Source of the DNA: Lachnospiraceae bacterium
GTDB taxonomy: Bacteria > Bacillota > Clostridia > Lachnospirales > Lachnospiraceae
Length of the DNA: 50,292 bases
Direction of reading: 5' to 3'
NCBI GenBank assembly: GCA_017513625.1
Contig: JAFXEW010000040.1
Coordinates: 1-50,292, forward strand
The position numbers and the translations under genes were made by a program. How positions within the stretch are numbered: position 1 is the stretch's first letter; the number at the start of each line of letters is the position of its first letter. The notes beneath the pieces are model-generated. The model worked only from the letters and a program-made list of their open reading frames with translations, ran no database searches and was not told the origin of the DNA. This document shows positions 1 to 4,997 of the stretch, in pieces.

Positions 1-769
1 ATCTAGTCCCTCCCTATATGCATCCATATAAGACAATTTATTTCTTTTTTCATTTAAAGCATCTAAATCGGCATTTATAATCTCTAATGATTGCTTTAAT
101 ACACTCAATGAAATGATACTTTTACTTTTTTCTAATACTTGGATAGTTTTTTGACACTCAGATATCCTATCATTTATTACACTTCTTTTAGTAAGTAGTA
201 TTTCGCTATATATCTGAAACAAAAAACAATATATCAAATCATATGTATCATTTGTTGTCATGATTGGCAAAAACTTTATAATACTCTCTTCTGCAGTATT
301 ATCCAATCGAACAAATTTAGGAATAAGCTGTCTAAATGAAGGCTTATCTTCCATCAAATCAAAGACTATTCTCTTTAACTCATTCCAAAATTCATTTTCA
401 TTATATGCTTCATCAAAAATATATTTTTTCCCTCGAGGGAACAAATCTCTTTTTATAATATATTCCTTCTCATCTGTTCCCACTAATATCAATTCTGCCT
501 GTACCTTATTCTCAATCAAAAAAGTCTTTATCTCTGCATTTTCACTTCGTGTATCAGAATCATAATACAACACTTTAGTTGATTTTGCGCCTAAACATAA
601 ATCAATAATTTTTATTGCTGTAGATTTACCAACACTATTACCACTTTCCCACATATCCTTAGGTGTGTTATCAACTATCAGACTAAGTCCTTTTTCATTA
701 AATGTAATCTCTCTAATAACCTCCTCAGAAGGTTTAGTCTTGCGTACTATCAACTTTTTTATCTTCATA
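1..769 (-). CDS. ABC-3C system ATPase (SMC/DUF2326-like), N-terminal part only
   Basis: The gene starts with ATG at 769 and runs off the left edge, so about 256 N-terminal residues are visible. The start follows a GGAAGG site and lies inside the last codons of the middle-component gene (36-base overlap). A Walker A P-loop reading SGNSVGKST at about residues 48-56 follows a short N-terminal strand region, then the chain becomes charged and coiled-coil-like (about residues 190-250). This fits SMC/RecN-like ATPases of the DUF2326 type that form the ATPase arm of ABC-three-component systems; Walker B and signature motifs would lie beyond the window. The role in a conflict or defence system is inferred mainly from the three upstream genes. 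It could be another AAA/SMC ATPase, but the gene order argues for ABC-3C. Confidence 0.8.
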
Positions 770-988
770 ATACACCTTCCCTTCCTCAATTCTTACTAAT
801 GACAGTAAAAACAACCAATCTAATGCATAATACATAAAATCCACATGAATCTTTTGCTCTAATTCATTTTGTATTTCTTGCAATAGTTCTTCGATTGCTA
901 TAACCCTCACTTGCTCTAAAAACTTTATTAATACACTGCCCAAATAGTACAAAGACATATCCGGTTCTCTTTCAATATTTACAATCAT
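734..988 (-). CDS. ABC-3C system middle component (MC6-like)
   Basis: An 84-residue protein starting MIVNIEREPDMSLYYLG. The start overlaps the stop of the upstream gene in an ATGA arrangement, with GGAG about 8 bases upstream; a longer frame to 1039 has no ribosome binding site. The N-terminal pattern (short strand, Pro, then S-L-x-x-L-G followed by a hydrophobic helix) and a C-terminal winged-helix-like stretch ending in a glycine turn match the small middle components of ABC-three-component systems, which bridge the ATPase and the effector. Its place between an ABC-3C C-terminal-domain gene and a P-loop ATPase is the strongest support. The exact middle-component subfamily is a guess from the N-terminus. 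Confidence 0.78.
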   Translation of the reverse strand: MIVNIEREPDMSLYYLGSVLIKFLEQVRVIAIEELLQEIQNELEQKIHVDFMYYALDWLFLLSLVRIEEGKVYYEDKKVDSTQD

Positions 989-1578
989 AATGGTTTCTCC
1001 AATATCTTGCATTCCATAAAACAATAACAAATAAAACATGTGATTCCGAGTTCCAAATCTTCCTGATATATTCTCCCCATTTCTCCTGATTCCTGAATCA
1101 CACGCAATATTCTTTCTCTGACTAAATTTATAATTCTATCCGAATTAACACGTATAATGTCTATTTCCGATTTTTCGGTATCATTATTTTCTAATAACAC
1201 CTCACCTTTTGCATACAAGTACCACATATGTACACATTTAAGAATTTTGGCTTTCCCGCCAATATTTGAATCATCATATGCATTCAGATAATTTTCACAT
1301 GTTAAATAATAAGCCGAAAATTCTTTTATAACATCTCTATACGCTACCACACCATTATATTCAATTTTATCATCCGGCCTATATTCGTGCATATCGGCTT
1401 CTCCAGTAGAGTATTCTTCTTCAGCGCAAGCATTTCCTAGCGACTTGATTAAACTGGAAATAAGAGATGGTATTTTAATAACTTTTTGCAAATTAACATA
1501 AATGTTTCCAGAATTATTTGCTACCATTACGCCCGAATTTTCACCATTATTTTCAACACTGTATTTATCATTTATCAT
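985..1578 (-). CDS. ABC-3C effector C-terminal domain protein with N-terminal N/G-rich motif
   Basis: A 197-residue protein. Residues about 8-28 hold an Asn/Gly-rich segment (NNGENSGVMVANNSGNIYV). The rest is alpha-helical and carries hallmarks of the ABC-3C C-terminal domain: an early YRPDDKIEYNGVV segment and a terminal block (DLELGITCFICYCFMECKI, then LEKPL) resembling the conserved Cys-rich end of that family. No enzymatic effector domain precedes the domain, unlike typical ABC-3C effectors, which fuse one to it. The start overlaps the upstream stop (ATGA), so it is translationally coupled to the small membrane protein. I infer that this chain docks to the middle component and ATPase while the killing or sensing module is supplied by the adjacent membrane protein through the shared motif. 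Confidence 0.75.
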   Translation of the reverse strand: MINDKYSVENNGENSGVMVANNSGNIYVNLQKVIKIPSLISSLIKSLGNACAEEEYSTGEADMHEYRPDDKIEYNGVVAYRDVIKEFSAYYLTCENYLNAYDDSNIGGKAKILKCVHMWYLYAKGEVLLENNDTEKSEIDIIRVNSDRIINLVRERILRVIQESGEMGRIYQEDLELGITCFICYCFMECKILEKPL

Positions 1579-1793
1579 GAATGAATTTCTCCTGTATTAA
1601 TGCCACTCATTACACCCGAGTTTTTTCCTTTATTAATAACTTCTACTTCACCATTATTTGCCACGTTACGACTTTTTTCTTCTTTTACTTGATTTAGTAT
1701 TTTTTTCGCTTCATTTTTAGCAGCAACGGCAACTATTGTAGAAATCACTGTTGCCACAGTCCCTATTACAGTTAAAATAAGTGTCCAATCCAT
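1575..1793 (-). CDS. Small single-TM protein with C-terminal N/G-rich motif (putative split ABC-3C effector)
   Basis: A 72-residue protein starting MDWTLILTVIGTV, chosen because AAGGAG lies 7 bases before this ATG; an in-frame ATG six codons upstream overlaps that site. Residues about 3-24 form one transmembrane helix, followed by a short Lys/Glu-rich helix (about 25-42) and a C-terminal segment INKGKNSGVMSGINTGEI. That segment aligns with the N-terminus of the next protein at about 11 of 21 positions, including NSGVM and the downstream N-x-G-x-I. It is the first gene of the coupled operon. Family data suggest effectors of such systems may act on membranes; here that is inference. No enzyme motif is present. 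Confidence 0.7.
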   Translation of the reverse strand: MDWTLILTVIGTVATVISTIVAVAAKNEAKKILNQVKEEKSRNVANNGEVEVINKGKNSGVMSGINTGEIHS

Positions 1794-1986: not shown

Positions 1987-2553
1987 CTAATGTGCCAAAT
2001 TATTTATATTTTTAATTTGTTTCATTTTATATGTATTGGCATATCTTGGCTTAAACGCATCATCTTTCTTTTCTAATTGTATCGCTATTCCATACGTGTT
2101 AGTTGGCTTGCGCATCGCAAAGAAGCCCTCTATCAGAATTAGATTTGCTTCTAACAACCTGCCATACTCTTCATCCTTCAAAAAAATACCCAGTCCCATC
2201 ACAACTTGATTATTCATATTCATTTTGGTGTAGTGCTTATCATTTAGCCACCCATTTATTTTTATGCATAAGTTGTTATCTGTTCGAACAGAAAAACATC
2301 TGGCATAAAATTCACTATATATGTTTTGGTCATTGCTTTGTAAACAGATTTCTATTTCGAAGACTTTCCCGCTATAATCGTTAGAATTTAAATATGCATA
2401 ATTATTCTCTTCTAATTCCGAATATCCACGCTTTTTACTTTCAATATAGTTTCCTACATACGCATTACAGCCGCCCACTACCATAGCACTTGTGGCATTA
2501 GCTTGCATAGCAGGCAACTGAAAATCAAATAATGTGATATTTGAATCTAACAT
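1987..2553 (-). CDS. Hypothetical protein, 188 aa
   Basis: I do not recognise the family. The start has GGAG about 8 bases upstream and follows the KTSC-like gene by 11 bases, so the two are probably co-transcribed. There is no signal peptide or clear membrane helix. The sequence alternates short hydrophobic strands with polar turns (for example VFEIEICLQS, YARCFSV and LCIKING), suggesting a mostly beta fold. The C-terminus is Lys/Asn-rich. Composition is AT-rich like the ABC-3C operon that begins about 190 bases further along, so both may belong to one imported segment. Whether it contributes to that system is unknown. Confidence 0.6.
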   Translation of the reverse strand: MLDSNITLFDFQLPAMQANATSAMVVGGCNAYVGNYIESKKRGYSELEENNYAYLNSNDYSGKVFEIEICLQSNDQNIYSEFYARCFSVRTDNNLCIKINGWLNDKHYTKMNMNNQVVMGLGIFLKDEEYGRLLEANLILIEGFFAMRKPTNTYGIAIQLEKKDDAFKPRYANTYKMKQIKNINNLAH

Positions 2554-2564
2554 ATTTCTCCTCT

Positions 2565-2786
2565 CTATTTCACATACTTATCCCTAACATATTTATTAAT
2601 ATATTCGTTTAACCCTTCTCCGTTTTTAGCCATTACTTTCATTAACTCAACTGCTTCTTTACCGGCACTTGCATATGAGTATGTATAGAGCCTCACCGTC
2701 TTCTTAAATTCGACCATAATATAGTCTGTCCCAATTTCATATGACTCTACGCCTGAATCTCCTCCTAAATTTTTATATATTTGCAT
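2565..2786 (-). CDS. KTSC-domain-like small protein
   Basis: A 73-residue protein. The layout fits the KTSC family: a short hydrophobic lead, SYEIGTDYIMVEFKK as a strand pair, a Y-x-Y strand (LYTYSYASAGKEAVELM), then A-x-x-G-x-G-L-N-x-Y-I-N and a terminal Arg/Lys helix. KTSC was named from a C-terminal lysyl-tRNA synthetase domain and also occurs as small stand-alone proteins of unknown function, often in phage or accessory contexts. It heads a two-gene unit with the unknown 188-residue protein. The match rests on pattern, not on an alignment. Confidence 0.55.
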   Translation of the reverse strand: MQIYKNLGGDSGVESYEIGTDYIMVEFKKTVRLYTYSYASAGKEAVELMKVMAKNGEGLNEYINKYVRDKYVK

Positions 2787-2980: not shown

Positions 2981-3679
2981 TTATGCATTGGCACATTCAA
3001 ATTGCCTGTTAATATATATCTTTTTAAACTGATTCATTTTGCGATAGGATATATCAATATCATCACCGTTACTCAGGTACACGATTCTGTCATCAATGCG
3101 TATTATTTCATCCAAGTTAACGATATATACATTGTGACATCTGCAAAAACAATTATCCGGCAACATATTCTCTATTTCCTTCATGGTATTACTACACTTA
3201 ACGGCGCCCTGTCTGGTATGTACCACAACATAATGCTTTTCTGTTTCTACGTAAATGATATTTTTTAATGTAATTTTTCGGACTCCGTCTCCTATTACAT
3301 TTACTTTGATTTTCTGATTACGCCCTAATACGGTTTTTGCTGAAGTAATAGCCTCTTCTACTTCTTCCAGTTGAAGCTTGTCTATGTATCTGAAAGCATT
3401 CACCATATATCCCTTGCGACTCATTTCAATATGCGTTGTCAGAATTATAAATATACCATCTGTCGCTCTTTCCTTTGCCCTGATAATCGTTTCAAATCCA
3501 TCCAATCCCGGCATCTCAATATCGACAAAAGAAATATCATAGCATTCTTTGCTTTCCAGATATTCTTCGCCATTTGAGAAAAACTCCATTTCAATCTCTT
3601 GGTCTTCATCACACCTGACTATTTCAGCACGAACTCGTTCCTGCCAATCTATTTCATCATCCACAATTGCAATTTTCAC
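2981..3679 (-). CDS. LytTR-family response regulator (AgrA-like)
   Basis: A 232-residue cytoplasmic regulator. It has a receiver domain at about residues 1-120, with the acidic pair D7-D8, phospho-acceptor D53 in FVDIEMPG and a conserved Lys region near residue 102, followed by a LytTR DNA-binding domain at about 130-228 (strands around KITLKNIIYVET and the conserved CRCHNVYIVNL segment). The start is a GTG preceded by GGAAG. It follows the sensor kinase by 19 bases, forming a two-component pair. LytTR regulators of this type act in quorum sensing, bacteriocin and accessory control; the target genes are not apparent here. Its own terminator follows directly. Confidence 0.92.
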   Translation of the reverse strand: MKIAIVDDEIDWQERVRAEIVRCDEDQEIEMEFFSNGEEYLESKECYDISFVDIEMPGLDGFETIIRAKERATDGIFIILTTHIEMSRKGYMVNAFRYIDKLQLEEVEEAITSAKTVLGRNQKIKVNVIGDGVRKITLKNIIYVETEKHYVVVHTRQGAVKCSNTMKEIENMLPDNCFCRCHNVYIVNLDEIIRIDDRIVYLSNGDDIDISYRKMNQFKKIYINRQFECANA

Positions 3680-3698
3680 AGTATCACTTCCTTACTAT

Positions 3699-4997
3699 TC
3701 AAATACTATTATTAAACAATATCGTTAATACAAATAATCCAGCCTGCACGTCGATATCGAATATACCATTGTATTTCTTAACACTATCCTTTATATTTTC
3801 CAGCCCGTATCCATGATAATCCGTATCCTCTTTTCGGGTTTTCCATTGGTTATTATTGTTATGTGATGTACTGTCAAATGAATTCTTGACTACAATAATA
3901 ATATTTTTGTCATTATACCTGCACTCAAGTGATATATACTTCTCTTCGGTCGTAATCGCCGCCTCATACGCATTACTTAATATGTTTGAAAAAATAGTAC
4001 ATAGGTCGAACGCATCAATTGCACAATCTGCCGGCAATCTTCCCCGTACATCCATCTTAACATCATTTTGCTTGGCCTTTGCATAATACTGATTAATAAT
4101 GGCATCCACAATGCCATTTTGCACCGTAACCAAATTACCAAACGTATCTATCTTCATGTGTATTTTTTCAAGGTAACTATTTATCCCTTCATATTCGTGG
4201 TTAATGGCCATGTGAGAAATCGTCTCCATATGGCTCCGCAAATCATGCCGAAACTTCCTTGTTTCTTTCTCCCTGTTCTCCAAATACTCATAGTGACTTT
4301 TTTGCTCATTCAGATATTTATCTGTTATGGCCTCTTTTTCCTTGTAAACATTTCGTTGAGTAAAAAGTAAGATCACTGCAGCCAACTGAATAAAAATCCC
4401 TATTATCACAAACACAACCGCCAGCAGATATATGTTTCTGTTCCTTGTCAAATTCAACTCTGTATTCATGAATTCTACAACTGTGACAACCAATGTATCT
4501 GCCAAAAGAAGAAGTGTAAACAAAAACAAATTAAATATTCCTATTGAGTTCATCCCTGATGCAGCATTTTTCTTGTATGTCCTCCCTACAACATAGACCA
4601 ATGACAAAGAAACAACCGAAACACATATATTTTTAAATATTCTGCCATCGGTACCCAACAAGTCCATAGACACATCATACAAAACAGCAATCATCGTATC
4701 TATCATAGATAATGCCAAGACAGCCCATACTAATGCCTTTAACACATCATATATCTTCTCCTCATATAACAGAAATGATAATATCACTAAAATAATGATA
4801 TATAATATGGTTTCTAACACTTCATTGTCATATAAATAAATGAATGTCGATATACCGCATACAGCACACCCAAGTAGTGTCAACCATATCTTCTTATGTT
4901 CTACCTGTCTTTGGTGAAATGCAAAAAACATATTGCACAAAACTGCAACCTTAACAAGATGCAAAATATCTGCTAACACATAAATAAAAAGTGCCAT
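3699..4997 (-). CDS. AgrC-like membrane sensor histidine kinase (GHKL)
   Basis: A 432-residue kinase. Six or seven hydrophobic helices occupy about residues 5-215, then a coiled coil, then a dimerisation helix with the phospho-acceptor His in FRHDLRSHME (near residue 252). The GHKL ATPase has an N-box NILSNAYEA and a G-box YHGYGLENI. This is the AgrC/ComD class that usually senses a peptide. GGGAGGGG precedes the ATG by a few bases. It pairs with the LytTR regulator downstream. No agrB, agrD or peptide-processing gene is visible in the window, so the ligand is unknown. An unusually strong dyad lies just upstream of the ribosome binding site. Confidence 0.9.
   Translation of the reverse strand: MALFIYVLADILHLVKVAVLCNMFFAFHQRQVEHKKIWLTLLGCAVCGISTFIYLYDNEVLETILYIIILVILSFLLYEEKIYDVLKALVWAVLALSMIDTMIAVLYDVSMDLLGTDGRIFKNICVSVVSLSLVYVVGRTYKKNAASGMNSIGIFNLFLFTLLLLADTLVVTVVEFMNTELNLTRNRNIYLLAVVFVIIGIFIQLAAVILLFTQRNVYKEKEAITDKYLNEQKSHYEYLENREKETRKFRHDLRSHMETISHMAINHEYEGINSYLEKIHMKIDTFGNLVTVQNGIVDAIINQYYAKAKQNDVKMDVRGRLPADCAIDAFDLCTIFSNILSNAYEAAITTEEKYISLECRYNDKNIIIVVKNSFDSTSHNNNNQWKTRKEDTDYHGYGLENIKDSVKKYNGIFDIDVQAGLFVLTILFNNSI

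What the first reader, a model, noticed from the sequence alone, without database searches (positions are those of the whole stretch)
734..1793. Split ABC-3C effector: membrane protein and CTD protein carry the same N/G-rich motif
The small TM protein ends in INKGKNSGVMSGINTGEI and the next protein begins with NNGENSGVMVANNSGNIYV; about 11 of 21 aligned positions match, including NSGVM and N-x-G-x-I. The genes overlap by ATGA. Known ABC-3C effectors fuse an effector domain directly to the C-terminal domain, whereas here the membrane module is a separate chain. Short Asn/Gly-rich pseudo-repeats of this type resemble amyloid signalling motifs of fungi and bacteria that let two proteins join by a shared cross-beta fold. 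If so, the ATPase-middle component complex could trigger membrane damage by templating the TM protein.
Basis: partly seen in the sequence, partly recalled or inferred. Interest (0 to 1): 0.87.

Follow-up and report, generated by a model that had tools for sequence, protein, structure and literature searches.

The report
Matched-motif split membrane defence effector
A gut bacterium's putative DNA-sensing defence operon seems to fire a tiny separate membrane protein through a short sticky motif that both partners share, and in related operons the motif changes but the two copies still match, as in the amyloid death switches of fungi and animals.

Summary
On the minus strand, a 72-aa single-pass membrane protein and a 197-aa ABC-3C-type (CTD10-like) protein overlap by ATGA, and the C-terminus of the first matches the N-terminus of the second. 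In the 50-kb window N.G.N.G occurs only at these two places in six frames. MC6 and a Lamassu/DUF2326-type ATPase follow. I found 13 distinct loci with such a gene pair. In 12 of 13 the two termini match beyond shuffles (at most 29 of 2000); L088 does not (132 of 2000). Between distant loci the motif changes class, yet the pairs stay matched: the cognate assignment is the best of 5040 permutations, whichever member represents the window's group. Shared residues do not share codons beyond chance, so this is no recent DNA copy. Relatives labelled as fused effectors lack the window's motif. Best reading: a homotypic, probably cross-beta, signalling motif lets the activated ABC-3C complex assemble a small membrane killer, working like BASS/HET-S/RHIM systems but with non-NLR, non-Bell partners. 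Pairing is well supported. Within the window's own close group there is no residue-level covariation.

The parts
1575..1793 (-). small single-pass membrane protein (72 aa from ATG at 1793; an in-frame GTG at 1811 would give 78 aa), putative effector
   Evidence: 7-member alignment; dN/dS 0.07-0.18 in six locus pairs, with dS near saturation in the distant ones
1725..1781 (-). transmembrane helix (residues 5-23), followed by a K/R-rich stretch: C-terminus predicted in the cytosol
   Evidence: best Kyte-Doolittle window 2.43; 0 K/R before it, 6 in the 20 residues after it
1584..1658 (-). C-terminal motif of the membrane protein: NxGxhxhxNxGxNxGhhxGxNxGxI
985..1578 (-). CTD protein of ABC-3C type (197 aa), N-terminal motif plus CTD10-like body, no fused effector domain recognised
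   Evidence: Pfam CTD10 E 4.3e-5, below the cut-off; alignment A2
1489..1557 (-). N-terminal motif of the CTD protein: hxNxGxNxGhhVxxNxGxIxhxh
997..1431 (-). CTD10-like domain (residues 50-194)
734..988 (-). middle component MC6 (likely start ATG 988, ATGA overlap with the CTD gene; ORF opens at 1039)
   Evidence: Pfam MC6 54.3 bits, cut-off 27.2
1..768 (-). 5' part of an SMC-like ABC ATPase (Lamassu LmuB / DUF2326 type), cut by the contig start
   Evidence: PADLOC LmuB E 5.4e-9; full-length relative L009 carries DUF2326 E 3.4e-14

Best explanation
This is an ABC-3C (Lamassu superfamily) defence operon in which the effector is not fused to the C-terminal domain but is a separate small membrane protein, coupled by a short homotypic motif carried on its cytosolic tail and on the N-terminus of the CTD protein. 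Shown by comparison: gene order, matching termini, concerted change of the motif between distant loci, purifying selection, grouping of the ATPases. Inferred: at rest the CTD protein is held by MC6 and the ATPase; on sensing foreign DNA the complex releases or clusters the CTD proteins; their motifs stack, probably as an N/G-laddered cross-beta nucleus, and recruit and template the tails of the membrane proteins, whose clustered helices then permeabilise or depolarise the membrane and stop the infected cell.
For: Matching termini in 12 of 13 loci: score 58 for the window (0 of 2000 shuffles as high), the other 11 score 36-79. The motif changes class between groups yet the pair stays matched: N.G.N.G (window group), VNNKG.I.G.I.G.V.NN (L099), GKVATN..G (L073), NNKL..KG..N.QQVG (L074), GN.NIQ..G (L078), QQVA.TI.N (L079); the cognate assignment is the best of 720 (6 groups) and of 5040 permutations (7 groups), with each of the 7 members standing for the window group, and also without the two weak loci (best of 120). 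For 6 of 7 group representatives the tail scores higher with its own partner than the best tail-tail or head-head score with another representative (L079 fails, L088's margin is within chance). Not a DNA duplicate: 35 of 66 shared residues use the same codon in the window group, 32.0 expected from codon usage. The membrane parts of window, L099, L073, L074, L078 and L088 score 31-88 against each other (some of it may be shared hydrophobicity), L079's only 15-20, so the pairing may outlast a change of membrane module. All 13 membrane proteins have one strong hydrophobic window and a basic far side (12, L099). In 28 loci labelled fused, N.G.N.G occurs twice, both times in short non-coding frames broken by stops. 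Conserved N/Q and G are a stated trait of amyloid signalling motifs (PMC7885112, passages); shared motifs in adjacent effector C-termini and receptor N-termini define BASS (PMC8086366 and PMC9815663, passages).
Against: No residue-level covariation inside the window's group of 7 (3398 of 5040 permutations as good); there, orthologous tails and heads score 85-124 with the window's, above the cognate 58, and L012's tail fits the L099 head (51) better than its own (46). L088 pair not significant (132 of 2000), L079 weak (29 of 2000). No amyloid motif among the listed Pfam matches, no PDB match of the motif profile. The window motif has no Q core. Nothing here shows fibres, toxicity or phage defence; a finite beta-strand dock would leave the same traces.
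Confidence: 0.55

Rival explanations
1. The motif pair is a finite docking interface (strand pairing or a small beta-solenoid heterodimer), not a polymer. It fixes the membrane effector to the ABC-3C complex one to one, replacing a covalent fusion.
For: A conserved, short, matched pair is all that a dock needs; no evidence of polymerisation exists; motifs of about 19-25 residues with N.G turns fit a few short strands.
Against: Docking partners need not resemble each other; here the two sides are alike in 12 of 13 loci and change class together, which is typical of homotypic stacking. N/G-rich and Q-containing classes resemble known amyloid signalling motifs.
Confidence: 0.27
2. The membrane protein is not a killer but an anchor: the motif pair tethers the ABC-3C complex to the membrane, where phage or plasmid DNA enters, and the CTD protein or another factor is the effector.
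For: The membrane protein is only 59-84 aa with one helix, little more than an anchor.
Against: No effector domain reached its Pfam cut-off in any of the 13 CTD proteins scanned, whereas three of four fused relatives scanned carry HNH or SMEK domains at that place; one membrane protein (L073) weakly resembles a phage holin family (phrog_13404, E 1.1e-4).
Confidence: 0.15
3. The similarity is a chance or historical leftover: low-complexity N/G-rich ends, or a tandem duplication without function.
For: Both ends are N/G-rich in the window group; within it all motifs are alike.
Against: Composition-preserving shuffles, 307 neighbour pairs and 397 genomes do not produce it; codons are not shared beyond chance and both genes are under purifying selection; unlike motif classes match in unlike loci.
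Confidence: 0.03

Closest known systems
ABC-3C / Lamassu (DdmABC, LmuABC) defence systems
   Same: SMC-like ATPase (DUF2326 in full-length relatives), MC6, a CTD10-like protein, operon order effector-MC-ATPase
   Different: No effector domain recognised on the CTD protein; a separate membrane protein with a shared motif takes its place
BASS pairs (bacterial amyloid signalling: Bell C-terminus and NLR N-terminus in neighbouring genes)
   Same: Short motif repeated at the C-terminus of a membrane-acting protein and the N-terminus of the adjacent gene's product; several motif classes, matched within the pair
   Different: No Bell domain and no NLR/STAND: a one-helix protein and an ABC-3C CTD protein instead; BASS profiles were not at hand, so membership of a BASS class is untested
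HET-S/NWD2 and PP (HELLP/PNT1) signalling of fungi; RHIM of animals
   Same: N/Q and G rich motif linking a sensor to a death protein; L074 and L078 carry hydrophobic-Q-x-hydrophobic-G cores near the RHIM/PP core
   Different: Exact core G-hydrophobic-Q-hydrophobic-G not met; the window motif has no Q; no HeLo domain

Membership tests
ABC-3C system with MC6 | middle component 6 | tested here: met
   window 54.3 bits, cut-off 27.2; above cut-off in the 10 further split loci scanned; L073 annotated as MC6, not scanned; L027's contig ends before it
ABC-3C system with MC6 | SMC/Rad50-like ABC ATPase with C-terminal DUF2326 | tested here: inconclusive
   window gene cut by the contig; its N-part matches LmuB, full-length relatives L009 and L073 carry DUF2326
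ABC-3C system with MC6 | C-terminal docking domain (CTD10) in the gene before MC6 | tested here: inconclusive
   window E 4.3e-5 but 24.5 bits against a cut-off of 28.1; L010 E 3.4e-4; the other 11 CTD proteins weaker or unmatched, none over the cut-off
ABC-3C system with MC6 | effector domain fused N-terminally to the CTD | tested here: not met
   little more than the motif precedes the CTD body in the 13 loci; no effector domain over its cut-off
BASS-type amyloid signalling pair | same motif in the C-terminus of the effector and the N-terminus of the adjacent partner | tested here: met
   12 of 13 loci
BASS-type amyloid signalling pair | effector with Bell/HeLo-like domain | tested here: not met
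   59-84 aa with a single helix; no such match among those listed
BASS-type amyloid signalling pair | partner is an NLR/STAND protein | tested here: not met
   partner is a CTD10-like protein of 181-222 aa without a recognised NTPase
BASS-type amyloid signalling pair | match to one of the BASS1-10 profiles | not testable with these tools
   profiles not held
BASS-type amyloid signalling pair | fibres and cross-seeding | not testable with these tools
   bench work
RHIM / PP motif | core G-hydrophobic-Q-hydrophobic-G (definition seen in passages of PMC7885112) | tested here: not met
   window motif has no Q; L074 (LQQVG/VQQVG) and L078 (IQVVG/IQILG) have one residue more between Q and G

The most novel reading that the evidence does not exclude
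A DNA-sensing SMC/Rad50-like complex of the Lamassu superfamily signals through a prion-like amyloid nucleus to a stand-alone membrane killer. Amyloid death signalling would then not be tied to NLR receptors, and motif classes would be exchanged as matched pairs, giving insulated defence circuits on plasmids, prophages and chromosomes.
Probability: 0.5. Interest if true: 0.87.

Novelty: new variant of a known kind. Interest (0 to 1): 0.76.

Why it matters
Amyloid signalling in immunity is known between NLR-type receptors and HeLo/Bell effectors, and between RHIM proteins. A matched-motif pair inside an SMC-like DNA-sensing system would show that this switch is modular across unrelated sensors, would explain how Lamassu-type complexes can use effectors too small or too hydrophobic to fuse, and offers small, testable peptide pairs of several classes. 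It also suggests a search rule: compare the C-terminus of each small membrane protein with the N-terminus of the next gene.

Tried and rejected
Considered and rejected. (1) Tandem DNA duplication: codons of shared residues agree no more than expected (35 of 66 against 32.0). (2) Artefact of overlapping frames: the gene ends range from a 32-nt overlap to an 11-nt gap, and the two motif copies do not overlap each other. (3) A widespread N/G-rich repeat: full-length motif matches occur only at this locus in 397 family genomes. (4) Exact RHIM/PP membership: core not met. (5) Fine coevolution inside the window's group: tested, absent.

Led nowhere. Phage records hold none of the ATPase or CTD queries tried; the plasmid search with the window CTD protein gave nothing, the ATPase was the productive query there. 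PDB sequence searches gave weak, unrelated hits for the ATPase and the CTD profile and none for the motif. Of 6 family genomes hit by the window CTD protein 3 are this operon and 3 are weak hits at E 0.003-0.01 that I did not look into; of 5 class genomes hit by the CTD profile, own and G943 (L088) are, G915 and G820 (L089, L090) showed no such operon, G709 was not looked into. G594 and G297 (L035, L072) showed none either. L080 was not classified. The two papers most wanted (NAR gkaa726 on ABC-3C, JMB 2020 on BASS) are not held, so a solo-CTD plus membrane protein variant may already be mentioned there. The statement that I found no paper joining Lamassu and amyloid rests on one search (0 papers) of an open-licence library in which 'ABC-3C' occurs in 2 papers.

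Dropped rows: the ATPase tree has 35 rows; the window (partial) and L079 (fragment) ATPases were left out, L027 has none and L099 was found later. 'Fused' is a label by gene size (one larger gene before MC6), checked by Pfam in four loci only; L077 bears it although its effector gene is cut by an insertion sequence, L093 has MC8 instead of MC6, and L030's contig starts 179 nt before its effector gene. L076 (second Acinetobacter copy) is not counted as a distinct locus; L062 repeats L027, L083 and L100 repeat L078, L004 and L005 repeat L010 and L013.

Full report
What is there. The window starts at a contig end (G000:C28:1-50292; the genome is 2.17 Mb in 136 contigs, 81.8% complete). On the minus strand four genes run towards the contig end: a 72-aa membrane protein (1793-1575), a 197-aa protein (1578-985), MC6 (988-734) and the first 256 or so codons of an SMC-like ATPase. 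The first two junctions are ATGA overlaps. Pfam gives MC6 above cut-off and CTD10 below it; PADLOC gives LmuB for the ATPase part.

The paired motif. The membrane protein ends ...NNGEVEVINKGKNSGVMSGINTGEIHS and the next protein begins ...YSVENNGENSGVMVANNSGNIYVNL. In seven close loci (window, L009-L013, L027) six columns, N.G.N.G and a further N.G, are invariant across all 14 motif copies. The score of the window pair is 58 against 25.8 +/- 5.1 for shuffles, 0 of 2000 as high. N.G.N.G occurs nowhere else in the six frames of the window.

Recurrence with a change of class. Baits made of the ATPase gave more distant operons: Collinsella aerofaciens (L073), Lacticaseibacillus paracasei (L074), Acinetobacter plasmids (L079 with an IS-interrupted ATPase, and L076) and two virus-collection contigs (L078, L099); the profile of CTD proteins gave one more Clostridia genome (L088). 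Of the 13 distinct loci 12 go on with MC6 (11 over the Pfam cut-off, L073 by annotation) and an ATPase (cut in the window, interrupted in L079); the contig of L027 ends after the CTD gene. The motif differs between groups, but the two copies within the operon match: SVNNKGVIGGSISGGVSNNV / SVNNKGIIAGKIEGDVTNNI in L099; TATGKVATNVVGSNNS / SAIGKVATNITGDSNS in L073; SNNKLISKGNNNLQQVGGKNSNG / SNNKLSAKGDSNVQQVGTTNING in L074; ATGNENIQVVGTGNQVN / ARGNDNIQILGDNNLVN in L078; SQQVAETIHN / TQQVAKTIIN in L079. Shuffles as high, of 2000: window 0, L009 1, L010 1, L011 0, L012 2, L013 0, L027 0, L073 0, L074 0, L078 0, L099 0, L079 29, L088 132. With one representative per group (7), the true pairing has the highest total of all 5040 pairings, 410 against 381 for the next; it stays the best with each of the seven members as representative of the window group (7 of 7 runs) and, of 120, without L079 and L088. 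For 6 of these 7 the tail-to-own-head score exceeds the best tail-to-tail and head-to-head scores with other representatives; L079 (34 against 39) is the exception, and L088 (31 against 25) is within chance. Window and L099 share 65 of 162 residues in the CTD body and 19 of 40 in the membrane part, but only 10 of 30 in the tail and 9 of 29 in the head, so the motif is replaced faster than the rest while its pairing is kept.

Results against fine specificity. Within the window's own group the true pairing is not better than random re-pairing (3398 of 5040 permutations as good), orthologous ends score 85-124 with the window's, more than the cognate 58, and the L012 tail fits the L099 head better than its own (51 against 46). 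These seven share one motif class, so this says that orthologues look interchangeable, not that the pair is absent. The three loci L073, L074 and L078 are related too (best outside scores 41-56), so the seven groups are not seven independent events.

Not a DNA artefact. In the window group 35 of 66 shared motif residues have the same codon in both genes, 32.0 expected; over 11 loci 55 of 111. dN/dS is 0.07-0.18 for the membrane gene and 0.09-0.15 for the CTD gene in six locus pairs (dS up to 3.3, so the distant ones are rough), and pN/pS of the motif stretches is 0.09-0.25 in three close pairs.

Controls. Among 307 neighbouring ORF pairs the only non-pair scoring 45 or more is a repeat-laden translation that looks like a CRISPR array. 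In 397 family genomes MC6 is found in 13: 3 are the split layout (own genome, G310, G361), 9 have a larger effector/CTD gene (256-419 aa; L063-L071) and 1 (G297) shows no operon. In 398 phylum genomes CTD10 is found in 8: 7 have a 247-340 aa effector/CTD gene, with no matched neighbour in the pair control, and 1 (G594) is a chance match. Of four such proteins scanned, L032 has an HNH domain, L063 and L075 a SMEK domain, L033 only CTD10. In 28 loci labelled fused N.G.N.G occurs twice, in short frames broken by stops; this tests only the window's motif class.

Evolution. In a tree of 35 ATPases all 9 split rows fall in one clade of 12 (support 100/99) together with three others, of which two (L063, L075) carry SMEK-CTD10 fusions and one (L077) has its effector gene cut by an insertion sequence. 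The split label needs 2 changes; one origin is not excluded (32% of 200 bootstrap trees).

The membrane module. In all 13 membrane proteins the best 19-residue window (Kyte-Doolittle 2.17-2.58) lies near the N-terminus, with 0 or 1 K/R before it and 4-7 in the 20 residues after it, so the motif tail should be cytosolic. L073 and L074 match phrog_29486, and L073 weakly a holin family (phrog_13404, E 1.1e-4); the CTD proteins of L073, L074 and L078 match phrog_33256. The Acinetobacter membrane part is not recognisably related to the others (scores 15-20).

Mechanism. In Lamassu, LmuB is thought to sense DNA and LmuA to be the effector that harms the cell (review PMC10586767, passages). Here the place of the effector domain is taken by the motif. 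The simplest working model is: ATPase and MC6 hold the CTD protein; on activation CTD proteins cluster; clustered motifs nucleate an ordered stack; tails of membrane proteins join; the clustered helices breach or depolarise the membrane. The pairing is shown by comparison; the stack, the order of events and the killing are inferred. Amyloid signalling motifs with conserved N/Q and G that sit in neighbouring effector and receptor genes are known from fungi and bacteria (PMC7885112, PMC8086366, PMC9815663, PMC12881547: passages), there between NLRs and HeLo/Bell proteins. The present pair works like these but fails two of their defining features (no Bell/HeLo, no NLR), so it is not filed as a member.

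Verdict. Observation confirmed and strengthened; interpretation partly supported; new variant of a known kind, with a bold reading (amyloid signalling from an SMC-like DNA sensor) that the evidence does not exclude.

Noticed in passing
L010:5164-5568 and L011:5285-5557: In two loci the operon lies just downstream of a truncated 5' piece that looks like uvrB (ResIII match; name and search words recalled), both reaching ..AVEYFVS; the later uvrB words searched were not found in the 12.5-kb loci. Possible shared integration site.
   Followed up: partly
L028 ATPase residues 275-399, L029 ATPase residues 276-400: Pfam CTD10 also matches the middle of the ATPase (E 9.9e-15 and 2.9e-20) in operons whose effector carries CTD10 too. 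Either the model is mixed or effector tail and ATPase arm are related.
   Followed up: partly
L078, L099, L027 (virus-collection contigs); L073, L074, L079 (plasmid records); L012 (upstream gene that looks like a serine recombinase, not scanned): The split operon occurs on mobile elements; L073 lies next to a restriction-modification system and toxin-antitoxin genes.
   Followed up: no
window 2565-2786 and 1987-2553, minus strand: Two small ORFs upstream of the operon without a Pfam match at E 1; their adjoining ends score 35 in the neighbour-pair control, among the highest of the non-pair rows.
   Followed up: no
window 2981-4997, minus strand: Genes that look like a response regulator and a membrane histidine kinase in Agr style (assignment recalled from the sequences, not scanned).
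   Followed up: no
L033:7330-7840: Array whose translation repeats FQFLIGRLKT, probably CRISPR, about 1 kb from an ABC-3C operon labelled fused.
   Followed up: no
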